64,000 nucleotides of DNA, taken from assembly GCF_964019385.1 (NCBI RefSeq), contig NC_088655.1:18267296-18331295 (forward strand), read 5' to 3'. The position numbers and the translations under genes were made by a program. The DNA is from Sycon ciliatum (lineage: Eukaryota > Porifera > Calcarea > Leucosolenida > Sycettidae). Position 1 is the stretch's first letter; every line of letters starts with the position of its first letter. The notes under the pieces are model-generated. The model was not told the DNA's origin. It ran no database searches and saw only the letters and a list, made by a program, of their open reading frames with translations. This document shows, piece by piece, positions 2,684-59,153 of the stretch.

Positions 2684-2941
2684 GCTGTGTACAGCATTGG
2701 GTATCACGCTCCTCGGCTTTTGCCTTGTTGAGCACTCCCAGTAGGCTGCTCTAGTGCTGCTGCATCGCACAATGCCCGCTACTTTTTGTAGTTTGAGCAC
2801 TCTGGCGCCAGAGCGACGAGCTATCATAAAGTCTGTGGTGCCTCCTTTGAACCATGGCTGGTAGCTCGGCCTATTTAGCTCGTAGCCGTACTGATGAGGC
2901 CATTATGGCCGAAACAGCTTGCTGTCTACAGCATTGGGTGC
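2684..2941 (+). repeat. Hammerhead-bearing ~240-bp repeat unit (1 unit plus a partial)
   Basis: The segment gctgtNtacagcattgggt occurs at 2684 and again at 2921, giving a 237-bp period. The body between them (gagcactc, tagtttgagcactct, cataaagtctgtgg blocks) matches the 240-bp units at 8041-8828. It is therefore a diverged member of the same family. Confidence 0.75.
2874..2941 (+). ncRNA. Type I hammerhead ribozyme (240-bp repeat family)
   Basis: The conserved core is present: CUGAUGA at 2891-2897 and GAAAC at 2911-2915. Stem II is GGCCA/UGGCC with a 3-nt loop. Stem III is ACAG/CUGU with loop CUUG. The cleavage triplet GUC ends at 2926. Stem I pairs GUA (2888-2890) with UAC (2927-2929), then an internal loop, then an outer helix GCUC/GGGU. 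This is the open-stem-I (type I) arrangement known from metazoan repeats. All catalytic residues look intact; the short inner stem I is the weakest part. Confidence 0.82.
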
Positions 2942-3450
2942 ATATAAAATATAAATTCAACATAATTATGCACAGTTCGCTCAGGCGAGTGATTTGCGTC
3001 GGGTGTGACGCTTGAGTGCTAAATCCTCCACACTTGCGCTTGAACCAATCTTAAATCCACCCAAAAAATAAGGATTGTGTTGCGCATTGTTCCTGTGGCA
3101 ATTCGATGATTAAGTGCCATCCCACGCCTGAATGAAAACAACAATAATGCCAATTTTATATCCTGAACAATATCAAACCTTGATGCACGCACAATTTCCA
3201 AATCACTTGGGACAGTCCACATATTCGTAGCGTCTCTACTTCTCTTGGCGGTGTCGACGTTTTTACATGCTTGTAGCTTTTATATTCAGTTCGCATAAAC
3301 ATTTCTTCGAGGTCAATACAAGGATTGTGAACTTTAAGCATGGGAATTCTGTCCTGAAAGTAGTGAATAACATCGACACTTTTCTTGATGGTGATATGGC
3401 CGAAAAACGAACAGAAACGGGTGTCGCACTTGGATCGACTCAAGTACTGC
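2942..3450. other. No recognisable gene
   Basis: Mixed-composition sequence. A 95-codon minus-strand frame (3156-3443) has no recognised motif and no supporting context. Confidence 0.5.
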
Positions 3451-3558
3451 AGAAGTGAACAGCGCGACAGGGTTACCCGTGACTGAGATTGCAGCTACAA
3501 GCAAACTACGGTTCAGTCAGCCTACAAACATTTCAATGGCGACACAACTCGCATCCAG

Positions 3559-4578
3559 TTGTCCACCGATTTTCAACCTGGGAGGAGAGCAAAACACTGG
3601 TCCGCCTGGCCGGGTGTTGTCTACAGTCCGGATGCGTCTGTGCAGCAACGTACCAGCACTAACCTAATACAGCCGGTCAATGCTGTTATCATCCCTACAC
3701 CGGACCATCCATCGACAGAGCAACTTCCAAACTTCTTGCAATTACTTAGAAGTCTGGATGAAGAGGAAAGCAAGCTCGATGCTCTCACTCCGCTAGTGCA
3801 GCAACCAACGAAGACCATTGATTCTGAGTCGAATTCTGCTGCCGGGTCCTTGTCGGGAGCGTGTTCATCCGGCTTGTGTCAAGTGAAAGATTCTGGTTCT
3901 GCCACCGGTTGTTATCCTACACAGCCCACCAAATTTTCTACCACTCCCACACTGAAACCAACTTTCGAGCCATTACCAGACTTCTCGCAATTACTGAAAA
4001 GTATAGAGAAAGGGAACAGGAAGCTTGCCGCTAGACAAGCAACGCGGGAGACAGAGGCAAGTAGACGTGACGTCACATTAGCAGGAACCATGCACTTCAC
4101 ATCACATACAGACTTTTGGTCTGAACATGCTGTCGTCGGAATCGCCTCCCAGTCGAAACCCAGCTCTGAGAACGTACGTCTCACTTACCGGATTAACGCT
4201 GCTTCTCCTTTTGTCCTTAGTACGTCAGAACGGGAACACCAAGAGGACGTTTACCTTGGGCAGAGAACAAGAGATTACGGAACAATTACACTTCCCTCTC
4301 AAGCCCATATTAGTAACGTCACTGCAGGTCGTTATAATTATACCATCTGGGCTCATTAAGGTATGCAAAACACTCCAGACGTTAGCAGCTCCGCAGAATC
4401 ATCAACACCTCGTTTGGTAAATAACGCATCTTTCTCTGGTGATGTCCAAGGTACATCACATTCAAGTATTGGCTTGTTCGCAGGCAGCAAAGATATTGTC
4501 CCAGTGGATACTCCCTCCCACTACAACTCCGAACTTCCTTCTCCCAATAATCCTTTCCACAATAGTTGTAAGCCGTGA
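3559..4578 (+). pseudogene. Ser/Thr/Pro-rich ORF with internal duplication, interrupted by one stop
   Basis: A 266-codon frame ends at TAA 4357-4359, and the same frame resumes for another 71 codons (4363-4578). The protein is low-complexity. It has an internal duplication of roughly 23 residues: LPNFLQLLRSLDEEESKL is echoed about 100 residues later by LPDFSQLLKSIEKGNRKL. I do not recognise the family and see no signal peptide, membrane span or zinc-finger pattern. The two halves sharing one frame across a single stop suggests a once-longer coding region, perhaps a retroelement or an expressed host exon. No splice site rescues the stop: the GT after CATTAAG comes after the TAA. Function unknown. 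Confidence 0.4.
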
Positions 4579-5590
4579 CGTTGCGAGCAATATATGAACT
4601 TTTTCGTAGTAGGTGGACGCGCGTGCGTGCGGGCATTTCAAGACAGGGAGCTGTAGAATATCAGTATTCTAGCGCTCCACATTACAAAAAGTATTTCGTA
4701 CTTCAAGTTGATCTGCCCTGTTTTGGTCGCGTTTGGACGGATATTTGCAGCGACTTTCGTTATTTGAACCGGGACGGTTGAACTCGTACAATTTTTCGTT
4801 GTGCCCAACCTCTCTATTTATCGGCCAAGTATCGACTGGTTGATATTTTGCCGAAAAGCCGGAACTTCTAGTGCTTGCACGTGGTGGACTGGGCATTGCA
4901 CCAATCTCTGTAGGCTTTTCATCATGACAGCAGAGTGTGTCTGTGCAGACCGTGGACTGGCTGCACTGGATCGCTACTACAGTATTCATCGGAAACTGGC
5001 CCGCTGGCTTTTGAAAGTCCGATTTGGGCCGAATTGAGGATGAAAAACCCATTTTAAATCTCAAAAATACGGGTTTTGGATCTGCTTCTCCATACATTTT
5101 GCCATGGCATAACTATCCGTATTTTGTTAAACCTGGCTGAACTTCTATTTCCCTGTTCTTGGACTTTTCTGGCCACAAATATGGCAAGGAGTAATTGCAC
5201 GGGTCACACAATGCAGGACGTACTGTTGTTTTCACGATATCTACAACTATGTGAGAGAAAAATTAGGGTGCCAGTTTCCAATAAACTGTAGAAGCAAGCT
5301 GTAGAAGCAAGCCGTTTCACGCTTTGGCCTTGTACTTTGTTGCTTGTTTGCATGCCCTTGTGGTCTTTAGCAATTTGTCTCTTTACCATCCGCAGGTCTA
5401 CAAGCACTACAAGCAACCCACTGAAGTGTAGTTCAGTGGGTTTTGCAAAGCGATAAGGGTACCCGAAATCCTATCAGATCTCAGGGATGCATGGAGACGT
5501 GGAGATCTGATCATTTTCGCGGCACGTGTGCACCCATATTGTGGTTTGACGTCTCTACTCTCACTCACTAGTAGCACATTGGAAGCTTAA
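4579..5590. other. No recognisable gene
   Basis: No domain, terminal repeat or tRNA-like block was recognised. A 142-codon minus-strand frame at 4669-5097 lacks motifs and is probably chance. Confidence 0.45.
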
Positions 5591-5975
5591 GGCTGTGTAT
5601 ACATGAGGCGTTTCAACCCGGGTTGAGTTCGACCCCTGTCAGATTTCAACCCACCTTGTGCACAAAATGAATGGCGCGTTTACATGACGCATTGCGCTTG
5701 ACCCAGGTTGAAATATCAACCCTGGTCAAGAAAATCGTACAAACGTACTTGTGTGTGTATCTCGCGACAGTTTGGAACAGCACTGCACATGCAATTTTCG
5801 CACGAACGGATTCACGTGACCACACAGGACTCTAGAAGTGTACTTTTAGCGGTATATCAGCATTAGACCCGGGTCAACTATATTCATGTAAATGCTCACC
5901 TATTTTGTCTTTCGTACAGACTTTCAACCCAGGGTGAACTCGAACCGGGTGGAAATGCTTCATGTAAACACAGCC
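5591..5975. mobile_element. MITE with ~40-bp imperfect terminal inverted repeats
   Basis: Starts GGCTGTGTATACATGA and ends TTCATGTAAACACAGCC. The flanks are TAA on the left and TTA on the right. The interior is rich in 'tcaaccc' and 'gggttga' motifs that pair across the element. Non-coding; likely mobilised in trans by a cut-and-paste transposase. The exact superfamily is not shown. Confidence 0.8.
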
Positions 5976-6074: not shown

Positions 6075-6115
6075 AAGTTCGGAGTTGCACTGATCAGGCC
6101 TCATTGGCCGAAACA
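6075..6115 (+). ncRNA. Broken hammerhead ribozyme (240-bp family), 5' part only
   Basis: Same stem I strand (CGGAGUUGCA) and same stem II (GGCC, loop UCAUU, GGCC) as the 8-kb units. The core reads CUGAUCA instead of CUGAUGA (G8 changed), and a MITE begins just after GAAAC. Predicted inactive. Confidence 0.8.
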
Positions 6116-8042: not shown

Positions 8043-8095
8043 GCTCGGAGTAACACTGATGAGGCCTCATTGGCCAAAACAGTCTGGCTGTCTGC
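8043..8095 (+). ncRNA. Hammerhead ribozyme, array unit 1 (inactive core)
   Basis: CUGAUGA is present at 8056-8062, but the GAAAC box reads AAAAC (G12 to A). Stem III ACAG/CUGU and the GUC triplet are intact. Predicted not to cleave. Confidence 0.85.
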
Positions 8096-8282
8096 ATCAT
8101 TGAGTATTTCGCTCCTAGATTTCAATCTTGTAGAGCACTCTCCGTAGGACGCACCTGTCTTGGTTTGCTTTATGCTTTATCCGCTGCTTCTAGCAGTTTG
8201 AGCACTCTCAGCGCTAGTACATCGAGTTGTCATAATGTCTGTGGGTCTCGAAGCCATGGCCAACAGTTCAAACCTATTTTTG

Positions 8283-8344
8283 GCTCGGAGTTGCACTGAT
8301 GAGGCATCATTGGCCGAAACAGTCTGGTTGTATGCACCATTGAG
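8283..8344 (+). ncRNA. Hammerhead ribozyme, array unit 2
   Basis: CUGAUGA 8296-8302 and GAAAC 8316-8320 are intact. Stem III is ACAG/UUGU with loop UCUGG. The cleavage triplet is GUA (8330-8332). Stem I is UGCA/UGCA, an internal loop, then an outer CUC/GAG helix. Stem II has one mismatch (GGCA/GGCC). Core complete, so activity is plausible. Confidence 0.85.
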
Positions 8345-8522
8345 TATGTCCCTCCTAGATTTCGATTTTGTAGAGCACTATTCATAGGACGCACTTGCGC
8401 TGGTGAGCTTTATGCTTTGCCCGCTGCTTCTAGCAGTTTGAGCACTCTTAGCGCTAGTACATTGAGCTGTCCTAATATTTGTGGTTGTCGTAGCCATGAC
8501 TGACAGTTCAATTCTATTTTAA

Positions 8523-8584
8523 GCTCGGAGTTCCACTGATGAGGCTTCATTGGCCGAAACAGTCTGACTGTCTGCATCATTGAG
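8523..8584 (+). ncRNA. Hammerhead ribozyme, array unit 3
   Basis: CUGAUGA 8536-8542, GAAAC 8556-8560, and cleavage triplet GUC 8570-8572. The stem I strand reads UCCA against UGCA, leaving a C-C mismatch. Stem II is GGCU/GGCC with a closing G-U pair. The core is complete and the helices slightly weakened. Confidence 0.83.
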
Positions 8585-8762
8585 TATTTCTCTCCTAGAT
8601 TTTGATCTTGTAGAGCACACTCCATAGGACGCACTTGTGCTGGTTAGCTTTATGCTTTGCCCGCTTTTTCTAGAGGTTTGATCACTCTCAGCGCTACTAC
8701 ACCCAGCTGTCCTAATGTCTGTGATGCTTGCAGCCATGGATGACAGTTCAATCCTACTTTAA

Positions 8763-8828
8763 GCTCGGAGTTGCACTGATAAGGCCTCATTGACCGAAAC
8801 AGTCTGGCTGTCTGCATCATTGAGTAGA
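8763..8828 (+). ncRNA. Hammerhead ribozyme, array unit 4 (inactive core)
   Basis: The core reads CUGAUAA (G8 to A), and stem II is GGCC/GACC. GAAAC, stem III and GUC are retained. The array ends just downstream, within this unit. Confidence 0.85.
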
Positions 8829-17090: not shown

Positions 17091-17183
17091 ATTAATACCA
17101 TTAGCCCCATCCCTCCCACAAACAAGTCAACAAAGAGGCATCTTTGGATTGAGGAGTGCTGGTTCCGGAACAACTGGTTTGAA

Positions 17184-17420: not shown

Positions 17421-17519
17421 AATGCTAAATGGATGTAATATAGCGCAAGGCAGAACCGCAGCAAATAGCTAGATAACACCCGTTCTGAGAGTGGACGCAA
17501 TTAGTGGGTACGATAATTA

Positions 17520-17780: not shown

Positions 17781-17862
17781 TAGCCCCATCCCTCACACAA
17801 ACAAGTCAACAGAGAAGCATCTTTGGATTGAGGAGTGGTGGTTTCAAAATAACTGGTTTGAA

Positions 17863-29793: not shown

Positions 29794-29814
29794 TAATAAT
29801 AATAAAAATAATAG

Positions 29815-30010
29815 TAGAAAGGAAAAGGACATATGGAAACGAGTTAAGAGTAACTCTCCACCACTGTAACTAGATACTATATACAGTCAGAAAGTGCAAC
29901 AACTAGGCACAAAACTGACAGAGTACTGAGACATTCGACGTCCTGACACCTAGCTTCAACATATATCCCGGGGGTAGTTTCCATATGTACTTTTCCTTTC
30001 TACTTTTATT
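29815..30010. mobile_element. MITE-like solo ends of the inverted-arm family
   Basis: 'agtagaaaggaaaaggacat' is mirrored by 'atgtacttttcctttctact', and the interior matches 30220-30340 of the larger element. A short internally deleted relative, flanked by AAT-rich sequence. Confidence 0.7.
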
Positions 30011-30049
30011 ATTGGCTCAATACCCGAGTTTCAAATAATAATAATCTTC

Positions 30050-31134: not shown

Positions 31135-31371
31135 AATAATAATAATAATAATACTTTAAACCGAAGGTAAGTTATGGGTCGCAAATATCCACGCAAACAC
31201 ACATCCAGTCATAATAAGGCACTTGTCATAAGTATCCGAACGTTTTCGGTCCCTTCTCATCAAGGATTATACAGGGAATGGCTCAAGCTGGAAAGACTAA
31301 AACTTATATAGCGTAAAGATAATTAGATAACAACACTCGTGACAAGGTGGAAAATTATCAAGTTTAGCACG

Positions 31372-32288
31372 ACACAATAGCCACTGCGTCAAAGATACTT
31401 TCGAGTTTGTAGAAAAGCTAAAGGACGCAAGCTTTGAATCGAGCGGATTCATGTGCTCGTATGACGTGGTGAACTTATTTACTAACGTGCCACTACGGGA
31501 GACCATTGACATCTGCGCAACAACACTGTACCACAATAAATCCATTACTCCGCCGTCTTTGAACGAAACGGAGTTTGTGAAACTCATGTTAATGGTTACG
31601 TCGGGCGTTGAGTTTTCATTTGGCAACGTTATGTATAAACAAATAGATGGCGTTGCCATGGACTCGCCGCTTGGTCCTGTATTGGCTAATATCTTTGTAG
31701 GGTTCTGTGAAGCGTCCATTAGTCCATCATTGTGGCCCTCTATGTACTGTCGTTTTGTAGACGATGTGTACTGTCACGATGAGGATGAGGATGTCTGTGG
31801 GACTTTTCTACTAACTCTGAATAGTCTCCACCCGGCGTTGAGATTCACGTCGGAAGCGGAACAAAACGGCAGCTTATCCTTCTTGGATGTACAAATATCA
31901 CGGAATATTAACACTAAGAGTTTGGACACCACTATCTATAGGAAGCCAACGTTCACCGGCCTCTACATTCCGTGGGGGAGCTATACTCCAACGAAATCGA
32001 AGAGACATCTTGTGAAGGCGCTAGTTTACCGTGCACATAGAATATGTTCCCCTCATCTATTGCAGGACGAATTAGACAGACTGACATCAATATTTACGAA
32101 CAACGGCTATCCAAAGGAATTTCTGGCCAAGCTAATCAACGAAAAACCGGTGACAGACAAGCCTATCCAATTTGGACCTGACCGTTGCCCAGTGGTGCTC
32201 CGTTTACCCTGGGTTGGCACCGGTTCTGCGCGCGTGGAGAAGGATGTTCGTGGTATCGTATGTCCATCATATCCGTGCGTCAAGCTGT
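31372..32288 (+). pseudogene. PLE reverse transcriptase (5'-truncated, interrupted)
   Basis: The frame is open from about 31375 and includes the ATG at 31451. Visible motifs in order: SYDVVNLFTNVPLRETIDI (RT motif with first catalytic Asp), GVAMDSPLGPVLANIFVG, CRFVDDVY (xxDD catalytic pair), LSFLDVQISR, and TTIYRKPTFTGLYIPWGSY plus a PTKSKRHLVKALVYRAHRIC thumb. These are diagnostic for Penelope-like RTs. It continues with YPCVKL and is then cut by an LTR element inserted at 32289. The N-terminal part is missing. The catalytic residues themselves look intact. Confidence 0.92.
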
Positions 32289-32639
32289 GTAATAGGTAGC
32301 CGAGTGGTAGGCGCGGTGAAATCAACAATAATTACTTTTATTCTACTTTCAGGTACACACCTGAGATATAATCGTTCGTGAAAGAAGAAGCGGCAAAATA
32401 ACTAACTTTCTCTCCGGTGCTCACCTAGAGGTTGAATAGCTCGTTATTATCAAAATCTCATCTTCTTCGAGTTAGCTTTCATTGCTATCCAATCTAATCT
32501 AATCTTCTCTTCATCAAAACAGAAATGCGCAGCCGCTTTTATGCAGCAGACGCCGTACGCTTATATGCGGAGATACAACATAAGGTCGTTCCGTATTAGT
32601 TCCGTACTGCTTCCGTATTGGTCGGGCAGGGATACTACA
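32289..32639 (-). repeat. 3' LTR of the element inserted in the PLE
   Basis: Identical to 33774-34126 apart from scattered changes; its outer end is decayed (GTAATAGG for TGTATACATG). Contains 'gccgagtggtaggcgcgg' and ends GATACTACA on the plus strand. Confidence 0.92.
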
Positions 32640-33140
32640 CCCTCCCTTCCTACAGATTATCACGCCCTCGTGGTTTTCAAAAAATTAGTGAAGAGTTACG
32701 AACACAGCGTCAACTGGAAGATGGCAAATTATATCGGAAATGATAACGTTTAGAGTAGACAGAAGAAATGAACTGATAACAAATCATAAAGTAGAAGCAC
32801 ACCAGGTTCACACGATCTCACCGGGGTCAAAAGGGGAAAGAACTGTTCTCCAAATAGGACCTGAAAATCCACAGCACTCTTGCTGCACAACGCTGGCACA
32901 ACCCGCCAGGAACATCGCAGTTCAAAAACCGAACTGAATACACTATAACTATAAGGGTCGTTGTCACACACATTGTCCCACGTTAGCTGGGTAAGCCGTG
33001 GCTCACCATGATCAGACGCCTACCAAACTAAACTGGATTCACACACTCGCATAAAGGAAGACTGAAGAGAACAGGGAGACTGAAGGAAGACAGGAAAGAA
33101 AATGCCATACCTGGAATCAGCGTTAGTAACCACGGCGGCG

Positions 33141-33680
33141 GCTGGAGCTATGGCGGAGAGCAAGCCAGGTTTTATCTTCATCTTGGTTGAGCCGGTCACT
33201 CAGAGCGGCTAGCTCGGCGTCAGACAAATGACTTCCCTCCTCGTCTTGAATCGTGGTCTTCACATTGTCGATAGCATCGCTTTTCGCGACGTAAAGAGTG
33301 ATGGTCTAGCCAGGAAGAATGTTGACGAAATTCTGCATTCCACCACGGAGACGAAGTACCAAGTGAATAGTGGACTCCTGCTGAACGTTGTAGTCACTCA
33401 GGGTTCGGCCGTCTGCCAACTACGCGCCGGCAAAAATCAAACGCTGCTGGTCTTGGGGAATACCCTCCTTGTCTTGGGCAGCAGCCTGCCTGTTGTCGTC
33501 CTCATCAGCTTCGCCATCACCACCAGTAGTTAACATGTAGGTAGCGGGTCGCTTGGAATCGCCATCGGAGTCTCCAGTGGATGCCATGCGGAGGGAAGGG
33601 TGATCCACGCTAGCACCCTGACTGTGCTGCAAGCTAATAAGTAGGGCCAAGCCCAGGACGGCAAGAAACATGATTCTCAT
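33141..33680 (-). pseudogene. Signal peptide-ubiquitin chimera carried by an LTR element
   Basis: ATG at 33680 on the minus strand starts MRIMFLAVLGLALLISLQHS, a clear signal peptide, then an acidic linker (GDGEADEDD). It then continues as ubiquitin from about residue 30: [17 protein letters not shown]. After a TAG (33420-33422) the same frame reads [20 protein letters not shown] and VLRLRGG, immediately followed by a second ubiquitin start ([10 protein letters not shown], another TAG, TITLYVAKSDAIDNVKTTI). A head-to-tail polyubiquitin was therefore captured, with the first half of unit 1 replaced by a secretory leader. Two stops make it a pseudogene now. Confidence 0.85.
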
Positions 33681-33773
33681 CTTGATTCGTGGCAGGGAGC
33701 TGCAGCGGGTTGAGCCATGGGGGTCTGGGGTCGAATCACGTCGTTATATTTTAAACTACACCGCTGCCACCAA

Positions 33774-34126
33774 TGTATACATGTAGCCGAGTGGTAGGCG
33801 CGGTGAAATCAACAATAATTACTTTTATTCTACTTTCAGGTACACAACTGAGATATAATCGTTCGTGAAAGAAGAAGCGGCAAAATAACTGACTTTCTCT
33901 CCAGTGCTCACCTAGAGGTTGAATAGCTCGTTATTATCAAAATCTCATCTTCTTCGAGTTAGCTTTCATTGCTATCCAATCTAATCTAATCTTCTCTTCA
34001 TCAAAACAGAAATGCGCAGCCGCTTTTATGCAGCAGACGCCGTACGCTTATATGCGGAGATACAACATAAGGTCGTTCCGTATTAGTTCCGTACTGCTTC
34101 CGTATTGGTCGGGCAGGGATACTACA
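33774..34126 (-). repeat. 5' LTR of the element inserted in the PLE
   Basis: 353 bp, TGTATACATG to GATACTACA on the plus strand. On the minus strand it is followed after one base by the primer-binding-like TGGTGGCAGCGG, which resembles that of Mag-type Gypsy elements. Confidence 0.92.
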
Positions 34127-34131
34127 GCTGT

Positions 34132-35084
34132 ACGTCATATTTGGGACAGTGCGTGCGTTCAGTGTGAAGAAGGATGTTCTACCTACCCTTAGTAAAAGTA
34201 ACCTTATCTATTTCTTTCAATGCCGACAATGTGAAGATCGGTCTGTAGGTAGAACCCTTCAGCACCTGGGCGCACGCATTCGTCAACATGTGCCGTTAAG
34301 TTGTGTTCCGCTTGATGCGCGCGATTGTCGTCCTCGCCGTGGTCGTCCTCCAAAATGTGCTGTCCAGTCCATCGGTGGATCTTCCTCTTCCCGTGAAGAT
34401 GTGACTGCATGCCCGTCCTCCTCTGCGTGTGTAGGACACGGGCCAGCTGAGAACAGCATAAAAGATGGTGAAAGACCCACACGTAAACCACCGAAACTGA
34501 CAAAGGATCTGTCGGCGTCGGAAAGGGTGACGAGAAGCCAAGTGAAAATACGGACTGATGAGGACGAACGTACAACGACAACGGAAGTGACAACAACAGT
34601 CAATATTAGAAAACGTGGTAGACCGCGAAAACTAACCTCAATATCGGACACCGGACAAGTTGGAGTAAGAAGCTCAATAGAAATCCGCAATGGAGGAGAC
34701 GTAACGGAAAGGACACCGGGTATCGCGCACCCAACGGTTAGTGTCAAGAAACGTGGAAGGCCGTGGAAACGCGAAGAGACAGATAGTGGTGATGCCACGA
34801 AGAGGCGAGATGACGGGACATTGGAGGAGACAACACCCAATGGAGCTAAGAATCGCACTTCGTCAATCAAGCAACATCTGTCAGCCCGTACCAATTGTCG
34901 TGAGTTGTACAGTGATAATGTTTTCTCAATATTGTCACGTGGTAGATGTGCGTTACATTTGGCTGTGTTAGAAGCTTTGTATATCCGTAAGTTAGATCCT
35001 GAACTTTGCGTACAGAAAGAAAATGTGTTGTCGCTACAATTGTTTGGTGTTACTCCTCGTCGAGGTGGTAACAATGTAACTTAA
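34132..35084 (+). pseudogene. PLE GIY-YIG endonuclease with an AT-hook-rich insertion
   Basis: Resumes the PLE frame directly after the LTR element (VIFGTVRAF, then KKDVLPTLSKSNLIYFFQC). LIYFF and SVGRTLQHLGARIRQHVP form the GIY-YIG core; the second box is SVG instead of the usual YIG, while the catalytic-type Arg is kept. Then comes a ~200-residue insertion with three AT-hook-like motifs (RRGRPPK, KRGRPRK, KKRGRPWK). The standard PLE tail follows: DNVFSILSRGRCALHLAVLE, ALYIRKLDPELC, NVLSLQLFG. Normally the nuclease nicks the target to prime reverse transcription. The hooks may bind A/T-rich DNA, fitting the AAT-flanked insertion sites. Confidence 0.88.
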
Positions 35085-35131
35085 TTTGCTCACTATGTTG
35101 TTGTCACTATTATTATTTTCCTTCGAGTTTT

Positions 35132-35357
35132 GTGTCGTGCTAAAACTTGATAATTTTCCACCTTGTCACGAGTGTTGTTATCTAATTATCTTTACGCTAT
35201 ATAAGTTTTAGTCTTTCCAGCTTGAGCCATTCCCTGTATAATCCTTGATGAGAAGGGACCGAAAACGTTCGGATACTTATGACAAGTGCCTTATTATGAC
35301 TGGATGTGTGTTTGCGTGGATATTTGCGACCCATAACTTACCTTCGGTTTAAAGTAT
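35132..35357 (+). repeat. PLE 3' terminal segment (inverted copy at 31151-31371)
   Basis: 'gtgtcgtgctaaaacttg' to 'ggtttaaagtatt'. It includes a hammerhead-like relic near 35243-35270: CUUGAUGAG and CGAAAAC boxes with no good stem II or III. Known PLEs carry hammerheads here, so this may be a decayed one. Confidence 0.75.
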
Positions 35358-35402
35358 TATCCGCCTCCGACCTCTTTAAAAATAATAATAATAATAATAA
35401 TA

Positions 35403-35985
35403 ATTAAATAGGCGTCGAGGCGACAATAGTTTTAGAATTGCGATCAACAGAACGAGCTGAACCGACATTTCACAAAGGCTTTTATTGTATTCAAAAAACG
35501 AGTGGATACGAAGGCAGTGAAGAACATGGAAGAAAGAAAAAATGTGATCTGGAGAAAATGATGAACTTGTTCTAGTAGCAGCTTGTTCTGTTTGTTTGGC
35601 CCTGGTTGGCCATGGTGTCATATCTTGTGTCACAGTATACTAGTAGTCTGTACAAGTTTGTTAAGTGCTTTCGCAGTTTTTCCTGTTATTACCTTAGTGC
35701 TAGGATTATCATTTTCATAGGTGTTGTTTCTTCTCACTCCATTTCTCTTTGTTAGTATCTTTCTGGATTGTTTTTCATTAGTACAACGTAGCTTCCTGAG
35801 GAGTGTTGTGCAAAAACTAGTTCGAAGTACGATTTTTTGTTCATCATTTTCTCCATATCACATTTTTTCTTTCTTCCATGTTCTTCACTGCCTTCGTATC
35901 CACTCGTTTTTTGAATACAATAAAAGCCTTTGTGAAATGTCGGTTCAGCTCGTTCTGTTGATCGCAATTCTAAAATAATAATAAT
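35403..35985. mobile_element. Inverted-arm element, ~130-bp arms, AAT-flanked
   Basis: 'tagaattgcgatcaacagaa' onward (about 35436-35565) is mirrored at 35840-35975; both arms contain the same 35-codon shadow frame on opposite strands. The loop is about 275 bp. (AAT)n lies on both outer sides, as for the 30.2-kb element and the PLE. No hammerhead core found. Confidence 0.8.
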
Positions 35986-43123: not shown

Positions 43124-43164
43124 GTAAGGCTAATAAACTTGAGCAGAACTCTAAAACGAAATAG

Positions 43165-43500
43165 TGGGTGCGACTTAGGCGATGATTTGTAAGAAATGGT
43201 TTGCTCCCCACACTGGAGCTCGCGCTATTTCGCCGACTTTACTTGACACTTGACTGACTCACGACTGCCATCGAGACCATACGAGAAGTCCATCGAACCT
43301 TCGACTCGGCAAGCTTGCAAGAAAGCACCACTCCCTGCTCAATACACAGTGTTTCGGGGAATTCACCCCTCATCAGTTGAGCTTGAGTAGGCTGAGAAAG
43401 ATTGTGCCTGAAGAGCACCACTTATATAGTGCTCTCCAGGCACAAACATCACCAGGGATACAAACTTACAGAGACGCTCCGTTTCCAGCGCGACAATTTT
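43165..43500 (-). mobile_element. Retrozyme-like repeat (478-bp family), partial copy A
   Basis: On the minus strand it carries the family landmarks in order: 'ggaaacggagcgtctctg', 'gcactatataagtggtgctc', the hammerhead, 'ctttcttgca', 'gtgtcaagtaaagtcggcg', and 'gggagcaaaccatttctta'. One partial unit. No ORF. Confidence 0.88.
43328..43392 (-). ncRNA. Type I hammerhead ribozyme, retrozyme copy A
   Basis: Minus strand: stem I is GCUCAA/UUGAGC plus an outer CUACUC/GAGUGG helix across an AA/AGG internal loop. Core CUGAUGA; stem II GGGG/CCCC with loop UGAAUU; core GAAAC; stem III ACA/UGU with loop CUG; cleavage triplet GUA. Every core base is conserved. Confidence 0.9.
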
Positions 43501-47546: not shown

Positions 47547-50428
47547 ATCCTTTCGGATCCTGCTGACGAACACATTTGGACTACTGAGTAAACTTGGTGA
47601 CTTTCACCATGCTGTACACGTTCACCAACCTGACATTGCCATTGTAACAGAGAGCAAGCTAACCCCTGAGAAGGCTACTGATTCCGAACTGTCCTTGCCT
47701 GGGTACTACTCCCCACTGCGGAAGGATCGAACAGCTCATGGAGGAGGAGTTGCGGTTTGGGGTAAAGCCAGTCTGGCCCTCCGAGAACTCGATGACATCC
47801 AGGTCGGTAATGAGGAGCTAATATGGCTGAGTTTCAGAACTGTGGATAAGAAGTCAGTGGCTGTGTGTGCTGCATATCGCTCTGGCTACTGCCACGACAA
47901 TGACATCAGTACCCTTGAAGCCATCAGTGCTGGCATTGACCTGGGCCGTAAATCTTGTCAATATGTGGTATTGGCTGGAGATTTTAACGTACACAACGTG
48001 GATTGGCTCGGCAGCACCAAGACAACTCATGCAGGTGTGTACACTGAAGACATGCGTGCTTTTCACTGCTTGGAGCAGCACGTGCATGAGCCCACCAGGG
48101 GCCTTAACCCACTTGACTTAATAATGACTGACCTACCGGGAGATGCGACCGTCAATACCTTAGCACCTCTTGGAAACTCTGACCATGCCTGTGTCCTAGC
48201 TGACTTTCATGTAAGCACAGCAGAGGAACCACCAGTGACCAGAACTGTCTGGCGTTACCAACGCGCAGACTGGGACAGACTCCGCCACTTCTTTAGAACA
48301 ACAGATTGGCAGTCCACTGTCAGTGATGATCCTGATGCAATGTGTATGCACTTGACCCAGAATATTCTGGAAGGAATGCGCCGATACATACCGTCTAAGC
48401 AGTTGTGCATGAAACCATCTAACCCCTCTTGGTGGACACCGGAATGCACTGAGGCTGTAGCAGAGAAACAAAGAGCATGGAGGAGACTCTGCGCCGACCG
48501 GTCAAGTGCCCAGCTGCAAGCCCGTTACAATGTCGCCAAGCACTCGGCTACACATTGCCTGGCAACTGCCAAGCAGGCATTCACAGCAAGCCTGGCGCAG
48601 AAGTTAGTCTCTGGGTGTATGGCGTCTGTTGAATGGTGGCGAACCATCAAGAAGGCCTCTGACCACGGAAACAGCCCATCCATACCTACTCTCCGCAGCA
48701 CCGATGGTACGGAGCACGACACCAACCGCAGCAAAGCAGAGTGCATGGCCTAACACATCGCCAACAAATGCAGTCTAGGGGCAGACGACCTATCCGTTCC
48801 ATTTCCTTACGTCCGACCACGTACTGACCGCAACCTCGGCACCGTCCGGTTTCGCGAAACCACAGTCCAGCGAACTCTCCGCCAGCTCAACCCCACCAAG
48901 GCCACTGGTCCAGATGGGATACCTGCCCGCGTCTTGAAAGCTTGCTCTGCAGAATTGGCACGGCCGCTTTCAAAACTATTTACATGCTGTCTTCGCTCCG
49001 GTATCCAGCCACAACAGTGGAAGGTTGCACACGTAGTTCCAGTCCACAAGCGCAAGTCTAAATCGTCGCCATCAAACTATCGACCAGTGTCGTTACAGAG
49101 CATTCTCTCCAAGGTCATGGAGACCATAGTCAACAGGGCAATGATCAACTTCATGGAGACGTATCACGTCCTGTCAGAACGGCAATTTGGATTCCGTCGC
49201 GGCCACAGTGCAGCAGACCTGCTGACTGCTCTCCACCACCAGTGGGTGCACACCGCCGGAGATAAAGGAGCTTCTCGAGTGCTGGCCATCGACATTGCTG
49301 GAGCATTTGACCGGGTGTCTCACACTGGTGTGTTGCACAAGGCTAGAGTGTATGGCATCTCGGGAGACCTGCATCGGTGGCTCCAAGACTACCTCTGCAA
49401 CCGCACACTTCAAGTCCTCATCTCCGGCCAGACATCAGCCAGACGCCCAGTTAAGGCTGGGGTGCCACAGCGCAGTATCCTGGGGCCCACCTTATTCTTG
49501 GTCTACGTCAACGACCTTGAAGACCACCTCCCAATCGGCTCCAACCTTGCCTCATTCGCCGATGACACAACCCTATACACCGAAATTGCAACGCTCGCTG
49601 CTGTTCCTGACAACGCTAGAGTACTCCAGGCTGCTGTCGACCTAGTATCCAGTTGGGGCTCGGATTGGAAAGTGCAGTTCGAGCCAGCCAAATCTCAGGC
49701 CCTTACAATTTCCCACCATCGTCGGGACTGGCCAATACCCCTCCATTGTCTTCAATGGAACTCCTGTTGAGGAGCAGCCCTCCATCAAAGTACTCGGCGT
49801 CACGTTTGACCATCAGCTAAAATTCAGCCAGCATATCCGAACTGTTGTAGTCCGAGCAACGCAGAGACTTGGAGCCTTGCGCAAGACATTTCACTTGCTG
49901 ACTATTCCTGCCCGGCTTCGAGCCTACAAAGCCTTTGTCCGGCCGGTTATGGAGTACTGCCCAATCGTCTGGATGGGGGCAGCTCCTTCCCACTTGAATC
50001 GGCTGGACTGGGTGCAGGAGCGAGCCATCAAGGCAATACATCCGCAATGCTGGCTTCCTAGCCTCATAATTCGCCGCACCATCGCTGCCCTCTGCCTCCT
50101 GTATAAAGCCCTTTGCGATAATTCTCCCGCTCTTCTCTCGAGAATGGCTCCACCCCCGACACACCAACCCAGGACCACACGCCTCACCCGCCAGGCTGTA
50201 CGACTGTCCACCGCGCATCCCCATCAGTTACAGAATGTTCTTCCTGCCAATTCCCGGAACAATGTGAGCCGAGCCTTTCCCCACTCCGTCATCCCAATTT
50301 GGAACCAGCTGCCTACCTCTATCATTCCCCACCCATTTCACTCAAAGAACATCCAAAAGTTCAAGACAGCAGCTTATCACCATCTCTTCAGAACGAACTG
50401 GAACTGGGCCACTCATAGCATACGCGAG
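47497..50428 (+). pseudogene. LINE-B ORF2: AP-like endonuclease and RT, one stop and one frameshift
   Basis: Endonuclease (47497-48250): FRILLTNTFGLLSKLGDF (first Asn box), IAIVTESKL (Glu), HGGGVAVW, YVVLAGDFNVHNVDW (Asp/Asn) and LGNSDHACVLADF (Asp-His), so all main catalytic positions are present. TAA at 48751-48753 interrupts the linker. The same frame resumes into RT: ATGPDGIPARVLKAC, NYRPVSLQSILSK, VLAIDIAGAFDRVSH, GVPQRSILGPTLFLVYVNDL (usual GVPQGS changed) and SFADDTTLY. A frameshift near 49730 moves to the frame reading IKVLGVTFDHQLKFS, AYKAFVRPVMEYCPIVW, then VIPIWNQLPTSI before the end at 50428. Close to intact, thus young. Confidence 0.92.
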
Positions 50429-50761
50429 TAAGAGGGTACAGTGTCCTACCCTGCTTGGACATACATGTAATCTCTCCTCACGGACAGTCTCCTCTTGAAT
50501 TTAAAAGTCTAACAGCGTTCACATCAATATTCAACTTATTCTTTTTCTCACTGAGCAATACAATCTTTCCATTTTCTTTCTTCTGTTTTCTTTTTCAATT
50601 TAATCCTCCCCACCCAATATCCCTTTGGTGCGTCCATGGAGCTATGAAGCCGAGACCTCTGGTCGGCAGAGCTTAATGGGCCCCACCACCACACTCCATC
50701 ATTCACCCCAGTGTCTGGAGATATGTGGATTTTGTAGAGAAAAAAAAACAACAAAAAAAAA

Positions 50762-51240
50762 CACCTCGTGAACACCAGATGGCAGCGTGAGTCGGTGTCG
50801 CAACTGGACGGTGAGACAGACGTCGAGGACCCTCGGTCATTCGAAACGCTGTCACCTCCAAACGAACTAGTCACAAGCCCGCGCTGGGCACAACAGTACG
50901 AAGTAGGGGTTGCGACTTCGGCGATGATTTGTAAAAAATGGTTTGCTCCCCACACCGGAGCTCGCGGTATTCCGCCGACTTTACTTGAAACTTGACTGAC
51001 TCAAAACTGCCATCCAGAGCACACAAGAAGTCCATCGAACCTTCTACTCGGCAAACCTGCAAGAAAGCACCACTCCCTGCTCAATACACAGTGTTTCGGG
51101 GAATTCACCCCTCATCAGTTGAGTTTGAGTAGGCTGAGGAAGTTTGTACCTGTAGAGCACCACTTCTATAGTGCTCTCAAGGCACAAACATCACTAGGAA
51201 TACAAACTTACAGACACGCTCCGTTTCCAGCGCGACAAAC
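50762..51240 (-). mobile_element. Retrozyme-like repeat, full ~478-bp unit B (minus strand)
   Basis: Starts in the A-rich tail of LINE-B with 'cacctcgtgaacacc' and ends where the same sequence recurs at 51240, giving a complete unit of 478 bp on the minus strand. Contains one hammerhead and no ORF. Confidence 0.9.
51069..51133 (-). ncRNA. Type I hammerhead ribozyme, retrozyme copy B
   Basis: Same structure as copy A on the minus strand with core CUGAUGA/GAAAC intact, stem II GGGG/CCCC, stem III ACA/UGU and triplet GUA. Stem I has one A-C mismatch at its outer pair (ACUCAA against UUGAGC). Confidence 0.88.
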
Positions 51241-51474
51241 ACCTCGTGAACACCAGATAGCAGCGTGAGTCAGTGTCGCTCCTGGACGGTGAGACAGACG
51301 TCGAGGATCCTCGGTCATTCGCAACCACTACTTCGTACTGTTGTGCCCAGCGCGGGCTTGCGACTAGTTGGTTTGGAGTTGGCAGCGTTGCGAATGACGG
51401 AGGGTCCTCGACGTCTGTCTCACCGTCCAGGAGCGACACAGACTCACGCTGCTATCTGTTGTTCACGAGGTGTT
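51240..51474. repeat. Palindrome formed by opposed retrozyme segments
   Basis: Left arm 51240-51325 (minus orientation) and right arm 51387-51474 (plus orientation) are about 86-bp reverse complements, with a 60-bp loop. The strand of the retrozyme array switches here. Confidence 0.85.
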
Positions 51475-51552
51475 TGTCGCGCTGGAAACGGAGCATCTCT
51501 GTAAGTTTGTATCCCTGGTGATGTTTGTGCCTGGAGAGTACTATATATTACC
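51475..51552 (+). mobile_element. Retrozyme-like repeat, plus-strand unit C, left part
   Basis: 'gcgctggaaacggagcatctc' to 'gagagtactatatat'. Cut by a LINE at the TATA-like site; the unit resumes at 52448. Confidence 0.85.
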
Positions 51553-52447
51553 TCCACTGCTAAATAACTTGGCGTAACCATTGATGACCCGCTATCCTGG
51601 CAGCCACATGTCTCCAGTGCGGTGCAGAAGGCGTCAGTCACCATCAGCCAGCTATGGCGCCATGGGCGATCTCTGCCCATAAGAGCCCGCAGACTTTGGT
51701 ACATTGGCATTGTGCAAGCACGACTAACGTACGCATCCAATGCATTCTTCCCGTCGCTGACACAGCAGCTGCAGAGTCGTTTAAGCAAATCCAGCAAATC
51801 CGGAATTCGTGCAATTTTCCGACTCTCCAGCCGTGCATCCACAGCCCCCCTCCTCGTGCGCTTATCTATTCGATCCCTAACTCACATTTTTAACTACAAG
51901 GTTTTGTTTTTAGTTTTCCGTTGCCTACATGATCTTGCAAGTCCTCCTTTCTGCACCTACTTTCAGTTGATGGCTAACACAGGCCAAGCATCCGGGGATG
52001 ATCGCCGAATTACTCGAGGACCGGAGCAGCGGCTACTGCAAGTGCCTTTCCTTCCTGGACCTTCCGGTCGTCAGTCATTGACATTTGTGGGAAGCACTCT
52101 TTGGAATGCCCTTCCAAGTGATATTCGCCTCCACAGTGCGGCGGTTGCCTTTAAACTGGCTCTGAACAGAATTAATTGTAATTTGGAACCACCTTGCTCG
52201 GCATCCCTAAACATTACTGCATGGTTTCTCGGTGTTTTCTTCACTGCATGCTTACACATACACACACCCATTTGAATTATATACAAACTTTGTGCTTTGG
52301 AATTATCATGTTATGATTCTTTTTAATATTTCCTTCTCTCATAATATTATATTCGTTCTTAGCAGGAACCGGAGGTTTTTTCCTCTGGTGAGAAGGCAGA
52401 ATTGCCTGTGCTCTAAACGAATTCAAATAAAAGAAACAAACAAACAA
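51546..52447 (+). pseudogene. LINE 3' fragment inserted in a retrozyme array
   Basis: The frame to 52272 reads SSAVQKASVTISQLWRHGRS, then LWYIGIVQARLTYASNAFFP, VLFLVFRCLHDLASPPF and SLTFVGSTLWNALPSDIRLH: the RT C-terminal region of a CR1/jockey-like LINE. 5'-truncated. The 3' UTR ends in an ACAAAC-rich tail. ATAT at both junctions (retrozyme 'ctatat|aagtgg') is the probable target duplication, so this copy entered an existing array. Confidence 0.85.
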
Positions 52448-52481
52448 TATAAGTGGTGCTCTTCAGGCACAATCTTCCTCA

Positions 52482-52546
52482 GCCTACTCAAGCTCAACTG
52501 ATTAGGGGTGAATTCCCCGAAACACTGTGTATTGAGCAGGGAGTGG
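52482..52546 (+). ncRNA. Hammerhead ribozyme, retrozyme unit D (inactive core)
   Basis: Same helices as copy A, but the core reads CUGAUUA (G8 to U). GAAAC and all stems are intact. Predicted not to cleave. Confidence 0.88.
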
Positions 52547-52940
52547 TGCTTTCTTGCAGGTTTGCCGAGTCGAAGGTCCGATGGACTTCTCGTGAGTCAG
52601 TCAAGTGTCAAGTAAAGTCGGCGAAATAGCGCGAGCTCCGGTGTGCGGAGCAAACCATTTCTTACAAATCATCGCCTAAGCCGCAACCCCTATTCCGTAC
52701 TGTTGTTCCCAGCGCGGGCTTGCGACTAGTTGGTTTGGAGGTGACAGCGTTTCGAATGACTGAGGGTTCTCAACGTCGGTCTCACCGTCCAGAAGCGACA
52801 CTGATTCGCGCTGCTTTCTGGTGTTCACGAGGTGTTTGTCGCGCTGGAAACGGAGCGTCTCTGTAAGTTTGTATCCCTGGTGATTTTTGTGCCTGGAGAG
52901 CACTATATAAGTGGTGCTCTTCAGGCACAATCTTCCTCAG

Positions 52941-53004
52941 CCTACTCAAGCTCAACTGATGAGGGGTGAATTCCCCGAAACACTGTGTATTGAGCAGGGA
53001 GTGG
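52941..53004 (+). ncRNA. Type I hammerhead ribozyme, retrozyme unit E
   Basis: GCUCAA (52950-52955), CUGAUGA (52956-52962), stem II GGGG/CCCC, GAAAC (52977-52981), stem III ACA/UGU, triplet GUA ending at 52990, and UUGAGC (52990-52996 region). The outer CUACUC/GAGUGG helix is also present. Fully consensus. Confidence 0.9.
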
Positions 53005-53459
53005 TGCTTTCTTGCAGGTTTGCCGAGTCGAAAGTTCAATGGACTTCTTGTGTGCTCTGGATGGCAGTCGTGAGTCAGTCAAGTGTCAAGTAAAGTCGGC
53101 GGAGTAGCGCGAGCTCCGGTGTGGGGAGCAAACCATTTCTTACAGAACTCTAATGTTGGCATTAATACCTAAAACCGCAATGTTATACGTGGGCTACGAC
53201 AATTAGTCGTTTTTGTTCGAAAATCTCTGGCTCCCAAGGTGATAGAGGAAAATTCCTCACCACGTTTTCATGTACAGGCTATCTCCTCCAATCCGAACTC
53301 TCCCGATGCGGGACTACCCATCTATCTAGAATATTTATGACCTCTTTTAAGTCGGAAAAAATGGATTTCAACGAGAAAATTGCATGAAACTTGTTTTTGT
53401 GCAGGCTATCAGGATGAATTTTCCGGAATAAGGGGCAGCCGCGAGTCTCAACTTGCCCG

Positions 53460-56459: not shown

Positions 56460-58493
56460 TCAGAGACGGGAGACGTGGGCTGCAAGAACATCCTCTTTGG
56501 GTGGGGCTGGTACTGTGGCAATGTTACTGGGAACATCTGCAGGCACAGCGGGATAATCCAAGAGGCAGGTGGGTGTTTTGACATCGAGCAAATCCCTCTT
56601 GGTCTGCAGCACTTCTTCAAGCATGGCGAACATATATTCCACTGACTTTTTTTCATACACCTTCTTCACGACCCATTCCTTCATTGATTTTGGAAACACT
56701 AGTTTCAAACGTGGTGAGCCAGCCACTGTACTTGCCTGCTTGCGACCGACGTTGTTGTTGTGGTTGAGGGCAGCGAGCTGTTGCCGGGCGAGGATTCCTG
56801 GATACGGGAAGTGGATCCGTTTGGGTGTCCCCACAAGCTGGTTCGAATGGCACACCTCCAAGGATCCAGTGTGGCAGAAGTTGGAAACCTTTCCAATATC
56901 TGCAAGCACGATCTTGTCGGATACCACTGTCGTCAGTACTTTATGCTGCTCGGAGCCGCTGGCAGTATCAGGTGGCAGGAGCTCCTGCGAGTAAGACATA
57001 AACTTTGTGGAACCTGTCCAAGAGTGCTGATTGCAGATGTGGTGGAGCAGAGATTGCCATTTCTCTGTCATCAAGACAGAATCTTCATCACACGATTGAG
57101 CACACCACCACATGTGGAGAGCTACGGCCGGGATCCAGTTCCTGAGGTGTTCCATCTCTTTCTTGGTTGAGGCATTGACAAGCTTCTTAGAGATGGACTT
57201 GACAAAATGCCAAACATTGAACTGGTGTACAATCTCAGGGAAAGAATCTCTCATCATAGCTTTCACCTGGGTGCTTCTATCGGTGGCGAGCTGCGCAACA
57301 GTGTGAGCCGCTGCAGGATTCGTCTCAAGCCTTCCCGCTCCATAATACCACTATTGTTCTCAGTAATGCCAACATGCATAAGTTCAAAGTCGAAGATCAG
57401 CTCAGTGTCTTCTTCCATTATCGTATATGTACAATAGTTGGCTGAGTAGCCGGGGCTGTTGCACCTCCCATCACCGATAAACTTGAGATTTTCATTAGTT
57501 CCAAGGATATGTAGCGAGTCAACATGGTTTGACCATGCTTCGTTGACAACAGAACACAGGATTTTACGTTGCATATCGTAGAAAGCAGACTTGCCGACCA
57601 CGCCCAAGTTGAGCAGTGAGGAGAACAGGGTGAAGGTGCTAAACAAAGTGCCACTGAAGAGGATAGCAGCAGAGATCAACAGATTTCCAATGGGCGCGCG
57701 TTGCAACTTCGGTTGAGAGGTCCAGTGGTCGATGTGTCCATCTTCACACTCCGATGTCTCCAGCAATAGAGATCCCTGAACATGCTTTGAGTTTTTGATG
57801 ATTTTCTGCACGACAACACAAAGGAAGAACAGCCCGACAACACTCCATCAATCCAACGTACAGTAAATGAACAATCAATGTAATGCAACATAAAAAGCAA
57901 ATGACTAAAACCAATTCATTCATTGTTGCCCCTACACAGCATCCCCTACTTGAACACACACATGCACACAGCCCCGCATACCGCCACAACAGGCACAGTG
58001 CTGTAAAATTCCTCACCTTTCCACACTCTTGGCAGCGTTTGAATAGGTCATCCAGGTAACGCTCAAAGATGATGAACTTCCGATCATACACCGGATTATA
58101 CTCAGCTGGCTCCTCATCAGCTTGCCCAGAAGGCTCCTCTTCGCTTGTTCGAAAACTTGAGTCAATGCCTTGGTCACTATCTGCGGTGCTAGGCGTACTA
58201 GAGGAGCTTGAGCTACTGGATTTCACTTCAGCTTTAGCTGTAAGCAATGATGTAGCCTGTGGACAGACAGGTACACCATAGCAGCTCTTCATATAATATA
58301 ATCAACTTACTCAATCTGCGGACAGCATGCTGTTTCGTTCTTAATATAATCTCATACAATCAAGGGTTTGCTCCCCACACCGGAGCTCGCGCTATTCCGC
58401 CGACTTTACTTGACACTTGACTGACTCTCGACTGCCATCCAGAGCACACAAGAAGTCCATCGAACCTTCGACTCGGCAAACCTGCAAGAAAGC

Positions 58494-58560
58494 ACCACTC
58501 CCTGCTCAATACACAGTGTTTCGGGGAATTCACTCCTCATCAGTTGAGCTTGAGTAGGCT
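58494..58560 (-). ncRNA. Type I hammerhead ribozyme, retrozyme copy F
   Basis: Minus strand: CUGAUGA and GAAAC intact, stem I GCUCAA/UUGAGC perfect, triplet GUA. Stem II is GGAG/CCCC with one A-C mismatch. Activity plausible. Confidence 0.85.
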
Positions 58561-58610
58561 GAGGAAGATTGTGCCTGAAGAGCACCACTTATATATACAA
58601 TCTTCCTCAG

Positions 58611-58676
58611 CCTACTCAAGCTCAACTGATTAGGGTTGAATTCCCCGAATCACTGTGTATTGAGCAGGGAGTGATT
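58611..58676 (+). ncRNA. Hammerhead ribozyme, retrozyme copy G (inactive core)
   Basis: The core reads CUGAUUA, stem II is GGGU/CCCC-like, and the second box is GAAUC. At least two catalytic positions are lost. Confidence 0.85.
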
Positions 58677-59088
58677 CTTTCTCGCAGGTTTGCTGAGTTG
58701 AAGGTTCGATGGACTTCTCGTGTGCTCTGGATGGCAGTCGAGAGTCAGTCAAGTGTCAAGTAAAGTCGGCGGAATAGCGCGAGCTCCGGTGTGGGGAGCA
58801 AAACTTTTCTTATAAATCATCGCCGAAGTCGCAACCACTACTTTGTACTGTTGTGCCAAGCGCGGGCTTGCGGTTATTTGGTTTGGAGGTGACAGCGTTG
58901 CGAATGACCGAGGGTCCTCGACGTCTGTCTCACCGTCCAGGAGCGACACTGACTCACGCTGCTATCTGGTGTTCACGAGGTGTTTGTCGCGCTGGAAACG
59001 GAGCATCTCTGTAAGTTTGTATCCCTGGTGATGTTTGTGCCTGGAGAGCACTATATAAGTGGTGCTCTTCAGGCACAATCTTCCTCAG

Positions 59089-59153
59089 CCTACTCAAGCT
59101 CAACTGATGAGGGGTCAATTCCCCGAAACACTATGTATTGAGCAGGGAGTGGT
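59089..59153 (+). ncRNA. Type I hammerhead ribozyme, retrozyme copy H
   Basis: Stem I GCUCAA/UUGAGC, CUGAUGA, stem II GGGG/CCCC with loop UCAAUU, GAAAC, stem III ACA/UGU with loop CUA, triplet GUA. Fully consensus apart from neutral loop changes. Confidence 0.9.

What the first reader, a model, noticed from the sequence alone, without database searches (positions are those of the whole stretch)
2874..59153. Three unrelated repeat families in 64 kb, each carrying type I hammerhead ribozymes
Family 1 (240-bp tandem, 2.9/6.1/8.0-8.8 kb), family 2 (478-bp, 43.3/51.1/52.5/52.9/58.5/58.6/59.1 kb) and family 3 (inverted-arm element, 30.6 kb) share only the catalytic core; stems, loops and bodies differ. 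I count 13 hammerheads, of which about 8 keep every core base. Established: animal retrozymes, Penelope-type elements and some satellites carry such ribozymes. Three families side by side suggests a genome with an active ribozyme-RNA ecology.
Basis: partly seen in the sequence, partly recalled or inferred. Interest (0 to 1): 0.93.

Follow-up and report, generated by a model that had tools for sequence, protein, structure and literature searches.

The report
Hammerhead retrozymes with Penelope-like insertion scars
This stretch of an unnamed, probably animal genome carries several families of small repeats that encode self-cutting RNA, and two of them sit in the genome with the same unusual insertion scars as a neighbouring Penelope-type jumping gene, which points to the enzyme that copies them.

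Summary
Rfam calls none at its cut-off, but a core-plus-stems scan gives 11 candidates against a mean of 0.1 in simulated windows. They belong to dispersed families: 4,760 family-2 and 1,331 family-3 hammerheads genome-wide. Family 3 is a 592-nt tandem family, not a lone inverted element. As a kind they are animal-type retrozymes, already known.

What looks new is how families 2 and 3 are inserted. Of 24 insertions with two outward-facing arms, 18 have both outer ends at two sites about 28 nt apart near the unit's 3' end; all 18 pair site A with site B, none A/A or B/B. Insertions carry 12-14-bp target duplications or lie in (TAA)n-like repeats. A Penelope-type element at 31.1-35.4 kb shows the same architecture, which matches published Penelope biochemistry. 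Penelope machinery is therefore the likely mobiliser, a question left open in print. Family 1 differs: 23 of 23 insertions are one-directional, 22 ending just after the hammerhead. Cleavage, circular RNA and expression could not be tested.

The parts
2773..2939 (+). family 1 copy, old; hammerhead core at 2891 intact
   Evidence: 75-77% to the 8.3-kb unit
6079..6115 (+). family 1 hammerhead fragment, core broken at 6090
8043..8826 (+). family 1 array, three 240-bp units plus a fourth hammerhead; cores 8056 broken, 8296 and 8536 intact, 8776 broken
   Evidence: 636 candidates, 40 scored
30166..31137 (+). family 3 insertion: inverted arm 30166-30564 ending at site B, plus arm 30576-31137 with hammerhead 30584 ending at site A; (TAA)n on both sides
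29806..30035 (.). diverged family 3 fragments
   Evidence: 84-92%
31148..35384 (+). Penelope-type element: inverted 3' end 31148-31365, RT-like ORF 31343-32299, GIY-YIG-like ORF 34071-35084, 3' arm 35143-35360 plus tail; interrupted by a repeat-flanked insertion
   Evidence: motifs recognised by eye
35400..35975 (+). second Penelope-type element with inverted arms, tail on the left arm only; hammerhead-like relic at 35796
43157..43496 (-). family 2 copy, one arm, hammerhead 43376 intact, outer end at site B
50759..53144 (.). family 2 composite: minus arm 50759-51325, plus copies 51337-51547 and 52444-53144, with an intervening RT-like fragment; cores 51118 and 52956 intact, 52498 broken; outer ends at unit positions 139 and 446
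58362..59323 (.). family 2 dual-arm insertion: minus arm 58362-58595 (outer end 439, near site A), plus arm 58597-59323 (site B); cores 58543 and 59104 intact, 58626 broken
58308..58341 (-). short fragment of a fifth hammerhead family
   Evidence: 85% over 34 nt

Best explanation
The repeats are non-autonomous retrozymes: multimeric RNA is cut to unit length by the type I hammerhead and probably closed into circles (inferred from the literature, not shown here). Families 2 and 3 are then inserted by Penelope-type machinery (reverse transcriptase plus GIY-YIG endonuclease). It makes a staggered cut of about 12-14 bp, often in (TAA)n, and both 3' ends prime reverse transcription on the retrozyme RNA, one at site A and one at site B about 28 nt apart. 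Synthesis can run past one unit. The two cDNAs meet head to head, leaving outward arms, tandem units and a target duplication. Shown by sequence: the ends, arms, A/B pairing, duplications, tandem units, and a young Penelope-type family with open frames in the same genome. Inferred: RNA cutting, circles, which Penelope protein acts, and that the two primings are coupled. Family 1 is inserted from one side, starting just after its hammerhead, and may use another enzyme.
For: Family 2: 12 of 17 distinct loci are dual-arm; 10 of the 12 have both outer ends at A (442-452) or B (475-477), all A/B; the window copy at 58.3 kb (439/477) makes 11. Family 3: 7 of 10 dual-arm insertions resolve, all A (561-570)/B (586-592). 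Target duplications of 12-14 bp in 7 of 11 family-2 loci outside microsatellites, against 0.9% of mismatched flank pairs with 9 bp or more; the other 6 of 17 lie in (TAA)n-type repeats. Direction: in the first 100 listed family-2 hammerheads 16 of 59 clusters are dual-strand, 16 outward, 0 inward; the Penelope 3'-arm pattern, first 100 of 351, gives 29 outward, 1 inward, 3 same-strand neighbours within 5 kb. The window Penelope and the 35.4-kb element each have a tail on one arm only. RT-like ORF: 2,784 candidates, 127 scored; six listed rows have a stop-free frame of 1,025 codons. A purified Penelope protein extends both strands, prefers ATT and starts at two adjacent internal sites (PMC11167929); Penelope insertions have an inverted pLTR and a 31-bp tail on one of them (PMC3846280).
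Against: The tails of families 2 and 3 have no detectable similarity to the Penelope tail (p 0.16-0.61) and the units none to the element. An AC-rich hairpin between the sites is supported only in family 2 (z -3.4; family 3 -1.0, Penelope +0.3). Six of 24 dual-arm insertions do not show a clear A/B pair: L052, L064 and the window composite 50759-53144 have one end elsewhere, C3:21287400 ends at 544, C3:40974440 is compound, C3:10287590 was read at one end only. A/B pairing of the coding family rests on the window copy and roughly on L065. Family 1 shows none of this in 23 loci. RT and endonuclease are named from motifs; Pfam and PDB searches gave no support. Most loci were best hits, so samples favour young copies.
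Confidence: 0.62

Rival explanations
1. Families 2 and 3 are mobilised by LINE machinery, and the head-to-head arms come from twin priming.
For: LINE-like EN-RT ORFs lie in the window at 43742-46672 and 47470-49770; 12-14-bp duplications are also usual for LINEs (recalled).
Against: LINE twin priming inverts an internal piece, so only one outer end is the 3' end (recalled); here both outer ends are. Two start sites paired A/B and (TAA)n targets fit Penelope, not LINEs.
Confidence: 0.13
2. Families 2 and 3 are internally deleted Penelope elements (solo or tandem pLTRs with hammerheads), so the scars reflect descent, not capture of foreign machinery. This does not exclude retrozyme-like RNA processing.
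For: Penelope pLTRs carry hammerheads (PMC11167929); a TATATAAG box lies 39 nt before the degenerate hammerhead of the Penelope element and 44 nt before that of family 2 (counted by eye).
Against: No nucleotide similarity of units 1-3 to the window element or to L113/L114; the Penelope hammerhead is degenerate while families 2 and 3 keep intact cores. Other Penelope families of the genome were not surveyed.
Confidence: 0.18
3. Plain satellite DNA spread by unequal exchange or DNA circles; the hammerhead is a passenger.
For: Tandem arrays occur (family 3 up to five listed units at C2:30060357-30063288).
Against: Dispersed copies with target duplications, fixed 3' ends and scattered 5' ends; core conserved above body.
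Confidence: 0.05
4. Family 1 alone is mobilised by a different enzyme (LINE-like, single-strand priming just after the hammerhead).
For: 0 of 23 loci dual-arm, 22 of 23 ends at unit position 64-75, target duplications of 8 bp or more in 9 of 23 against 3.4% by chance.
Against: Duplication lengths overlap those of family 2; no partner LINE 3' end was looked for.
Confidence: 0.5

Closest known systems
Metazoan non-LTR retrozymes (Cervera and de la Pena 2020, PMC7229834; results parts 1-2 of 3 and discussion read)
   Same: Non-coding tandem units of a few hundred bp with type I hammerheads, several families per genome, target duplications, coexistence with Penelope elements
   Different: Units of 478 and 592 nt exceed the 170-400 nt given there; head-to-head arms and two 3' ends are not described there (the words inverted and head-to-head do not occur)
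Penelope-like elements with GIY-YIG endonuclease (PMC3846280 passages; PMC11167929 parts 1-2 of 4)
   Same: Inverted arm, tail on one arm, tandem copies, AT-rich targets, priming on both strands at two sites, hammerhead in the RNA
   Different: Families 2 and 3 code for nothing, keep intact hammerhead cores, and have duplications of 12-14 bp against 8-10 bp in the A. vaga examples
Plant LTR retrozymes (PMC4918200; listing only, and as described in PMC7229834 and PMC7761336)
   Same: Non-autonomous hammerhead elements
   Different: Type III hammerheads, LTRs, 4-bp duplications, Gypsy-type machinery
Schistosoma W-elements (PMC8490949, passages)
   Same: Satellite-like repeats with functional hammerheads and signs of mobility
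   Different: No Penelope-type ends in the passages seen

Membership tests
Type I hammerhead ribozyme | Core CUGANGA..GAA..H with three stems, stem I open | tested here: met
   9 of 14 reader sites and 22629(-) have the core; stems scored for nine of these ten, 8536 has a weak stem I
Type I hammerhead ribozyme | Rfam gathering score | tested here: not met
   No window site; genome-wide 4 of 21 listed Hammerhead_1 matches pass, all of them fifth-family loci L001-L004
Type I hammerhead ribozyme | Self-cleavage | not testable with these tools
   Needs in vitro transcription
Metazoan non-LTR retrozyme | Short non-coding tandem units with type I hammerhead, dispersed in many copies | tested here: met
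   240, 478 and 592 nt units
Metazoan non-LTR retrozyme | Target duplications longer than 4 bp | tested here: met
   Family 1: 9 of 23 with 8 bp or more; family 2: 7 of 11 with 12-14 bp; family 3: one 12-bp case by eye (L091)
Metazoan non-LTR retrozyme | Length about 170-400 nt | tested here: not met
   Met by family 1 only; families 2 and 3 are 478 and 592 nt
Metazoan non-LTR retrozyme | Circular and linear unit-length RNA in tissue | not testable with these tools
   No RNA data
Penelope-type integration (families 2 and 3) | Both strands primed: outward arms ending in the same 3' region | tested here: met
   12 of 17 family-2 loci
Penelope-type integration (families 2 and 3) | Two adjacent start sites, tail on one arm | tested here: met
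   18 of 24 dual-arm insertions A/B, 0 A/A or B/B, 6 unresolved or with an end elsewhere
Penelope-like element (31148-35384) | RT and GIY-YIG endonuclease in one ORF | tested here: inconclusive
   Motifs by eye; open frames to 1,025 codons in relatives; Pfam and PDB negative
Penelope-like element (31148-35384) | Direct pLTR before and after the ORF | tested here: met
   In copy L113/L114; the window copy has an inverted arm instead

The most novel reading that the evidence does not exclude
Animal retrozymes of this type are SINE-like parasites of Penelope enzymes, and the rule that one arm always starts at site A and the other at site B shows that both cut strands are primed within one complex on one RNA with two start sites. 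That would name the unknown retrozyme mobiliser and add a mechanistic step to Penelope integration that a bulk assay does not show.
Probability: 0.42. Interest if true: 0.78.

Novelty: new variant of a known kind. Interest (0 to 1): 0.62.

Why it matters
Animal retrozymes make abundant ribozyme-derived circular RNAs (PMC7229834), yet what copies them back into DNA is a guess: a review of December 2024 still says LINEs or Penelope-like elements (PMC11722881, passage). Scars that can be read in any assembly, and a genome with thousands of retrozyme copies beside open-frame Penelope copies, make this testable by sequence and by one in vitro assay.

Tried and rejected
Family 3 as part of the coding Penelope element: rejected, it is a separate tandem family. 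The inverted-arm elements at 24336-26004 and 26755-27507 as hammerhead elements: no hammerhead found, other ends. An AC-rich hairpin between the two sites as a shared signal: only family 2 supports it. Tail similarity to Penelope: none for families 2 and 3. Circle folding: z -0.6, -6.5, -4.8 for families 1-3, not used as an argument. Hammerhead counts of families 1 and 5 did not complete. A/B frequency of the coding Penelope family: not usable, the query held the tail and so favoured long-tail copies. Structure prediction of the RT: switched off. Rows dropped: 11 of 30 family-2 loci overlap others, L040 runs off its end and L039 is the window copy, leaving 17; 7 of 30 family-1 loci overlap others or are duplicates with the same flanks, leaving 23. 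Of ten pairs of family-3 end pieces, five were dual-arm with at least one end read, one compound, three not simple dual-arm (C10, C4, C5), and one missed the ends (C1:96123100).
Full report
What was checked. The window is C14:18267296-18331295 of an unnamed 538-Mb genome, probably an animal's (inference). Rfam reports none at its gathering score; below it 30578-30628 scores 26.8 of 34 bits and 2883-2920 matches type III at background. A scan for the core with three stems found 11 candidates against a mean of 0.1 in 50 simulated windows. One is an unlisted hammerhead at 22629(-); in its family 16 of 20 copies read keep the core, while the stem II loop varies (counted by eye).

Copy number and age. 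Hammerheads within three mismatches: 2,424 plus 2,336 for family 2, 650 plus 681 for family 3, none for the reversed control patterns. Unit searches gave 187, 825, 778 and 636 candidates for families 1-4, 40 of each scored. Core against body substitutions: family 1 14/481 against 800/6,963; family 2 1/369 against 545/15,931; family 3 0/123 against 171/9,080. The family-2 and -3 samples were best hits to queries that held the hammerhead, and the family-3 loci were chosen from such hits, so part of this is selection. In 38 distinct family-1 hammerheads 24 have an intact core.

Family 1. All 23 distinct insertions run in one direction. The 3' end lies at unit position 64-75 in 22 of 23 (L018: 24), 10-21 nt after the expected cleavage site at position 54; 5' ends are scattered. 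Nine of 23 share 8 bp or more between the flanks against 3.4% of mismatched pairs, seven share 10 or more against 1.0%. This fits reverse transcription from one start on a circular or multimeric RNA; the data do not tell circle from multimer.

Families 2 and 3. Of 17 distinct family-2 loci 12 have a minus arm on the left and a plus arm on the right, so both outer ends are the 3' region of the unit; five are one-directional. Ends fall at A (442-452) and B (475-477). Ten of the 12 have one of each; L052 and L064 have one end elsewhere. The window copy at 58.3 kb is 439/477; the window composite at 50.8-53.1 kb has ends 139 and 446. In family 3 the places are 561-570 and 586-592. Of ten dual-arm insertions seven resolve and are A/B (window, L089, L090, L091, C8:30259620, C13:12618250, C7:5838540); in L089 a foreign stretch interrupts one arm. 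C3:10287590 is A with the other end beyond what was read, C3:40974440 is compound, C3:21287400 has one end at 544. So 18 of 24 are clear A/B and none is A/A or B/B; with independent, equal choice 18 of 18 has odds of about 4 in a million. Ends are BLAST boundaries, good to a few nt, and blur where (TAA)n begins. Duplications of 12-14 bp flank 7 of 11 family-2 loci outside microsatellites (one of them, L061, low in complexity); six of 17 lie in (TAA)n-type repeats. L091 of family 3 has a 12-bp duplication round the whole dual-arm structure (by eye), so it is one event.

Direction at larger scale. Of the first 100 family-2 hammerheads listed, 59 clusters: 34 single, 9 tandem on one strand, 16 dual-strand; the 16 are outward, none inward. 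Among the first 100 of family 3, five opposite-strand neighbours within 1 kb are outward and none inward; within 1.2 kb six and one (by eye).

The Penelope-type element. At 31148-35384 lie an RT-like ORF, a GIY-YIG-like ORF, a 218-bp perfect inverted copy of the 3' end on the left, (TAA)n on both sides, and a tail of roughly 20-25 nt on the right arm only. Another repeat-flanked insertion interrupts it. The name rests on motifs I recognise; Pfam and PDB sequence searches gave no support. The RT-like ORF has 2,784 candidates; of 127 scored, many are 95-98% identical and a second group about 78%; six listed rows have a stop-free frame of 1,025 codons. One such copy, read at both ends, has a direct pLTR before the ORF. 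Its arm pattern occurs 351 times; among the first 100, neighbours within 5 kb are 29 outward, 1 inward, 3 same strand. The element at 35400-35975 has its tail on the left arm only, and the two tails align (0 of 500 shuffles).

Print. PMC11167929 (parts 1-2 of 4): a purified Penelope protein cuts and extends both strands, prefers ATT, and starts at two adjacent internal sites that match the genomic tail; no strand difference in start site was seen there, which a bulk assay of unpaired products allows. PMC3846280 (passages): inverted pLTR, 31-bp tail on one of them, 8-10-bp duplications, mobilisation of foreign sequence in trans. It explains head-to-head junctions by self-priming, an alternative to priming from both cut strands that I cannot exclude. 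PMC7229834: Penelope elements proposed as retrozyme mobilisers from co-occurrence. In paper searches, in an open-access library, I saw no report of Penelope-type ends in retrozymes; two papers on Penelope hammerheads were not held.

Reading. The retrozyme identity is ordinary. The scars of families 2 and 3 match the Penelope family of the same genome and the published biochemistry in arms, two start sites, AT-rich targets and tandem units, without sequence similarity. That argues for shared machinery more than shared descent, though other Penelope families were not surveyed. That the two primings are coupled is inference. Family 1 warns against extending this to every retrozyme.

Noticed in passing
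29030-29790: One tRNA-Ser(TGA)-like gene and two identical tRNA-like copies with CTA anticodon in a 279-bp tandem, 99% alike; they look like SINE-type or pseudo-tRNA repeats.
   Followed up: no
32296-34130: Insertion flanked by 300-bp repeats, 99% alike, inside the Penelope-type element; LTR-like and non-coding at first sight.
   Followed up: partly
43742-46672 and 47470-50431: Two LINE-like elements with endonuclease and RVT_1 domains; the first has an uninterrupted frame of 976 codons.
   Followed up: partly
24336-26004 and 26755-27507: Two inverted-arm (foldback-like) elements without hammerheads.
   Followed up: partly
56460-58301 and 60998-61609: Minus-strand ORFs with weak MULE/Mutator transposase matches, and a THAP-domain ORF.
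   Followed up: no
L001 and L005, near 1501-1547: Insertions of a fifth family that hold little more than the hammerhead itself, L001 with a 13-bp repeat on both sides, L005 in a TTA repeat.
   Followed up: partly
L094, L108, C7:5839255 and C7:5840141, C5:22269973 and C5:22272342: Different ribozyme families and Penelope copies often lie next to each other in the same (TAA)n repeats.
   Followed up: no
17183-18253 and 60525-60853: 22-bp and 20-bp minisatellites, the second inside a minus-strand open frame.
   Followed up: no
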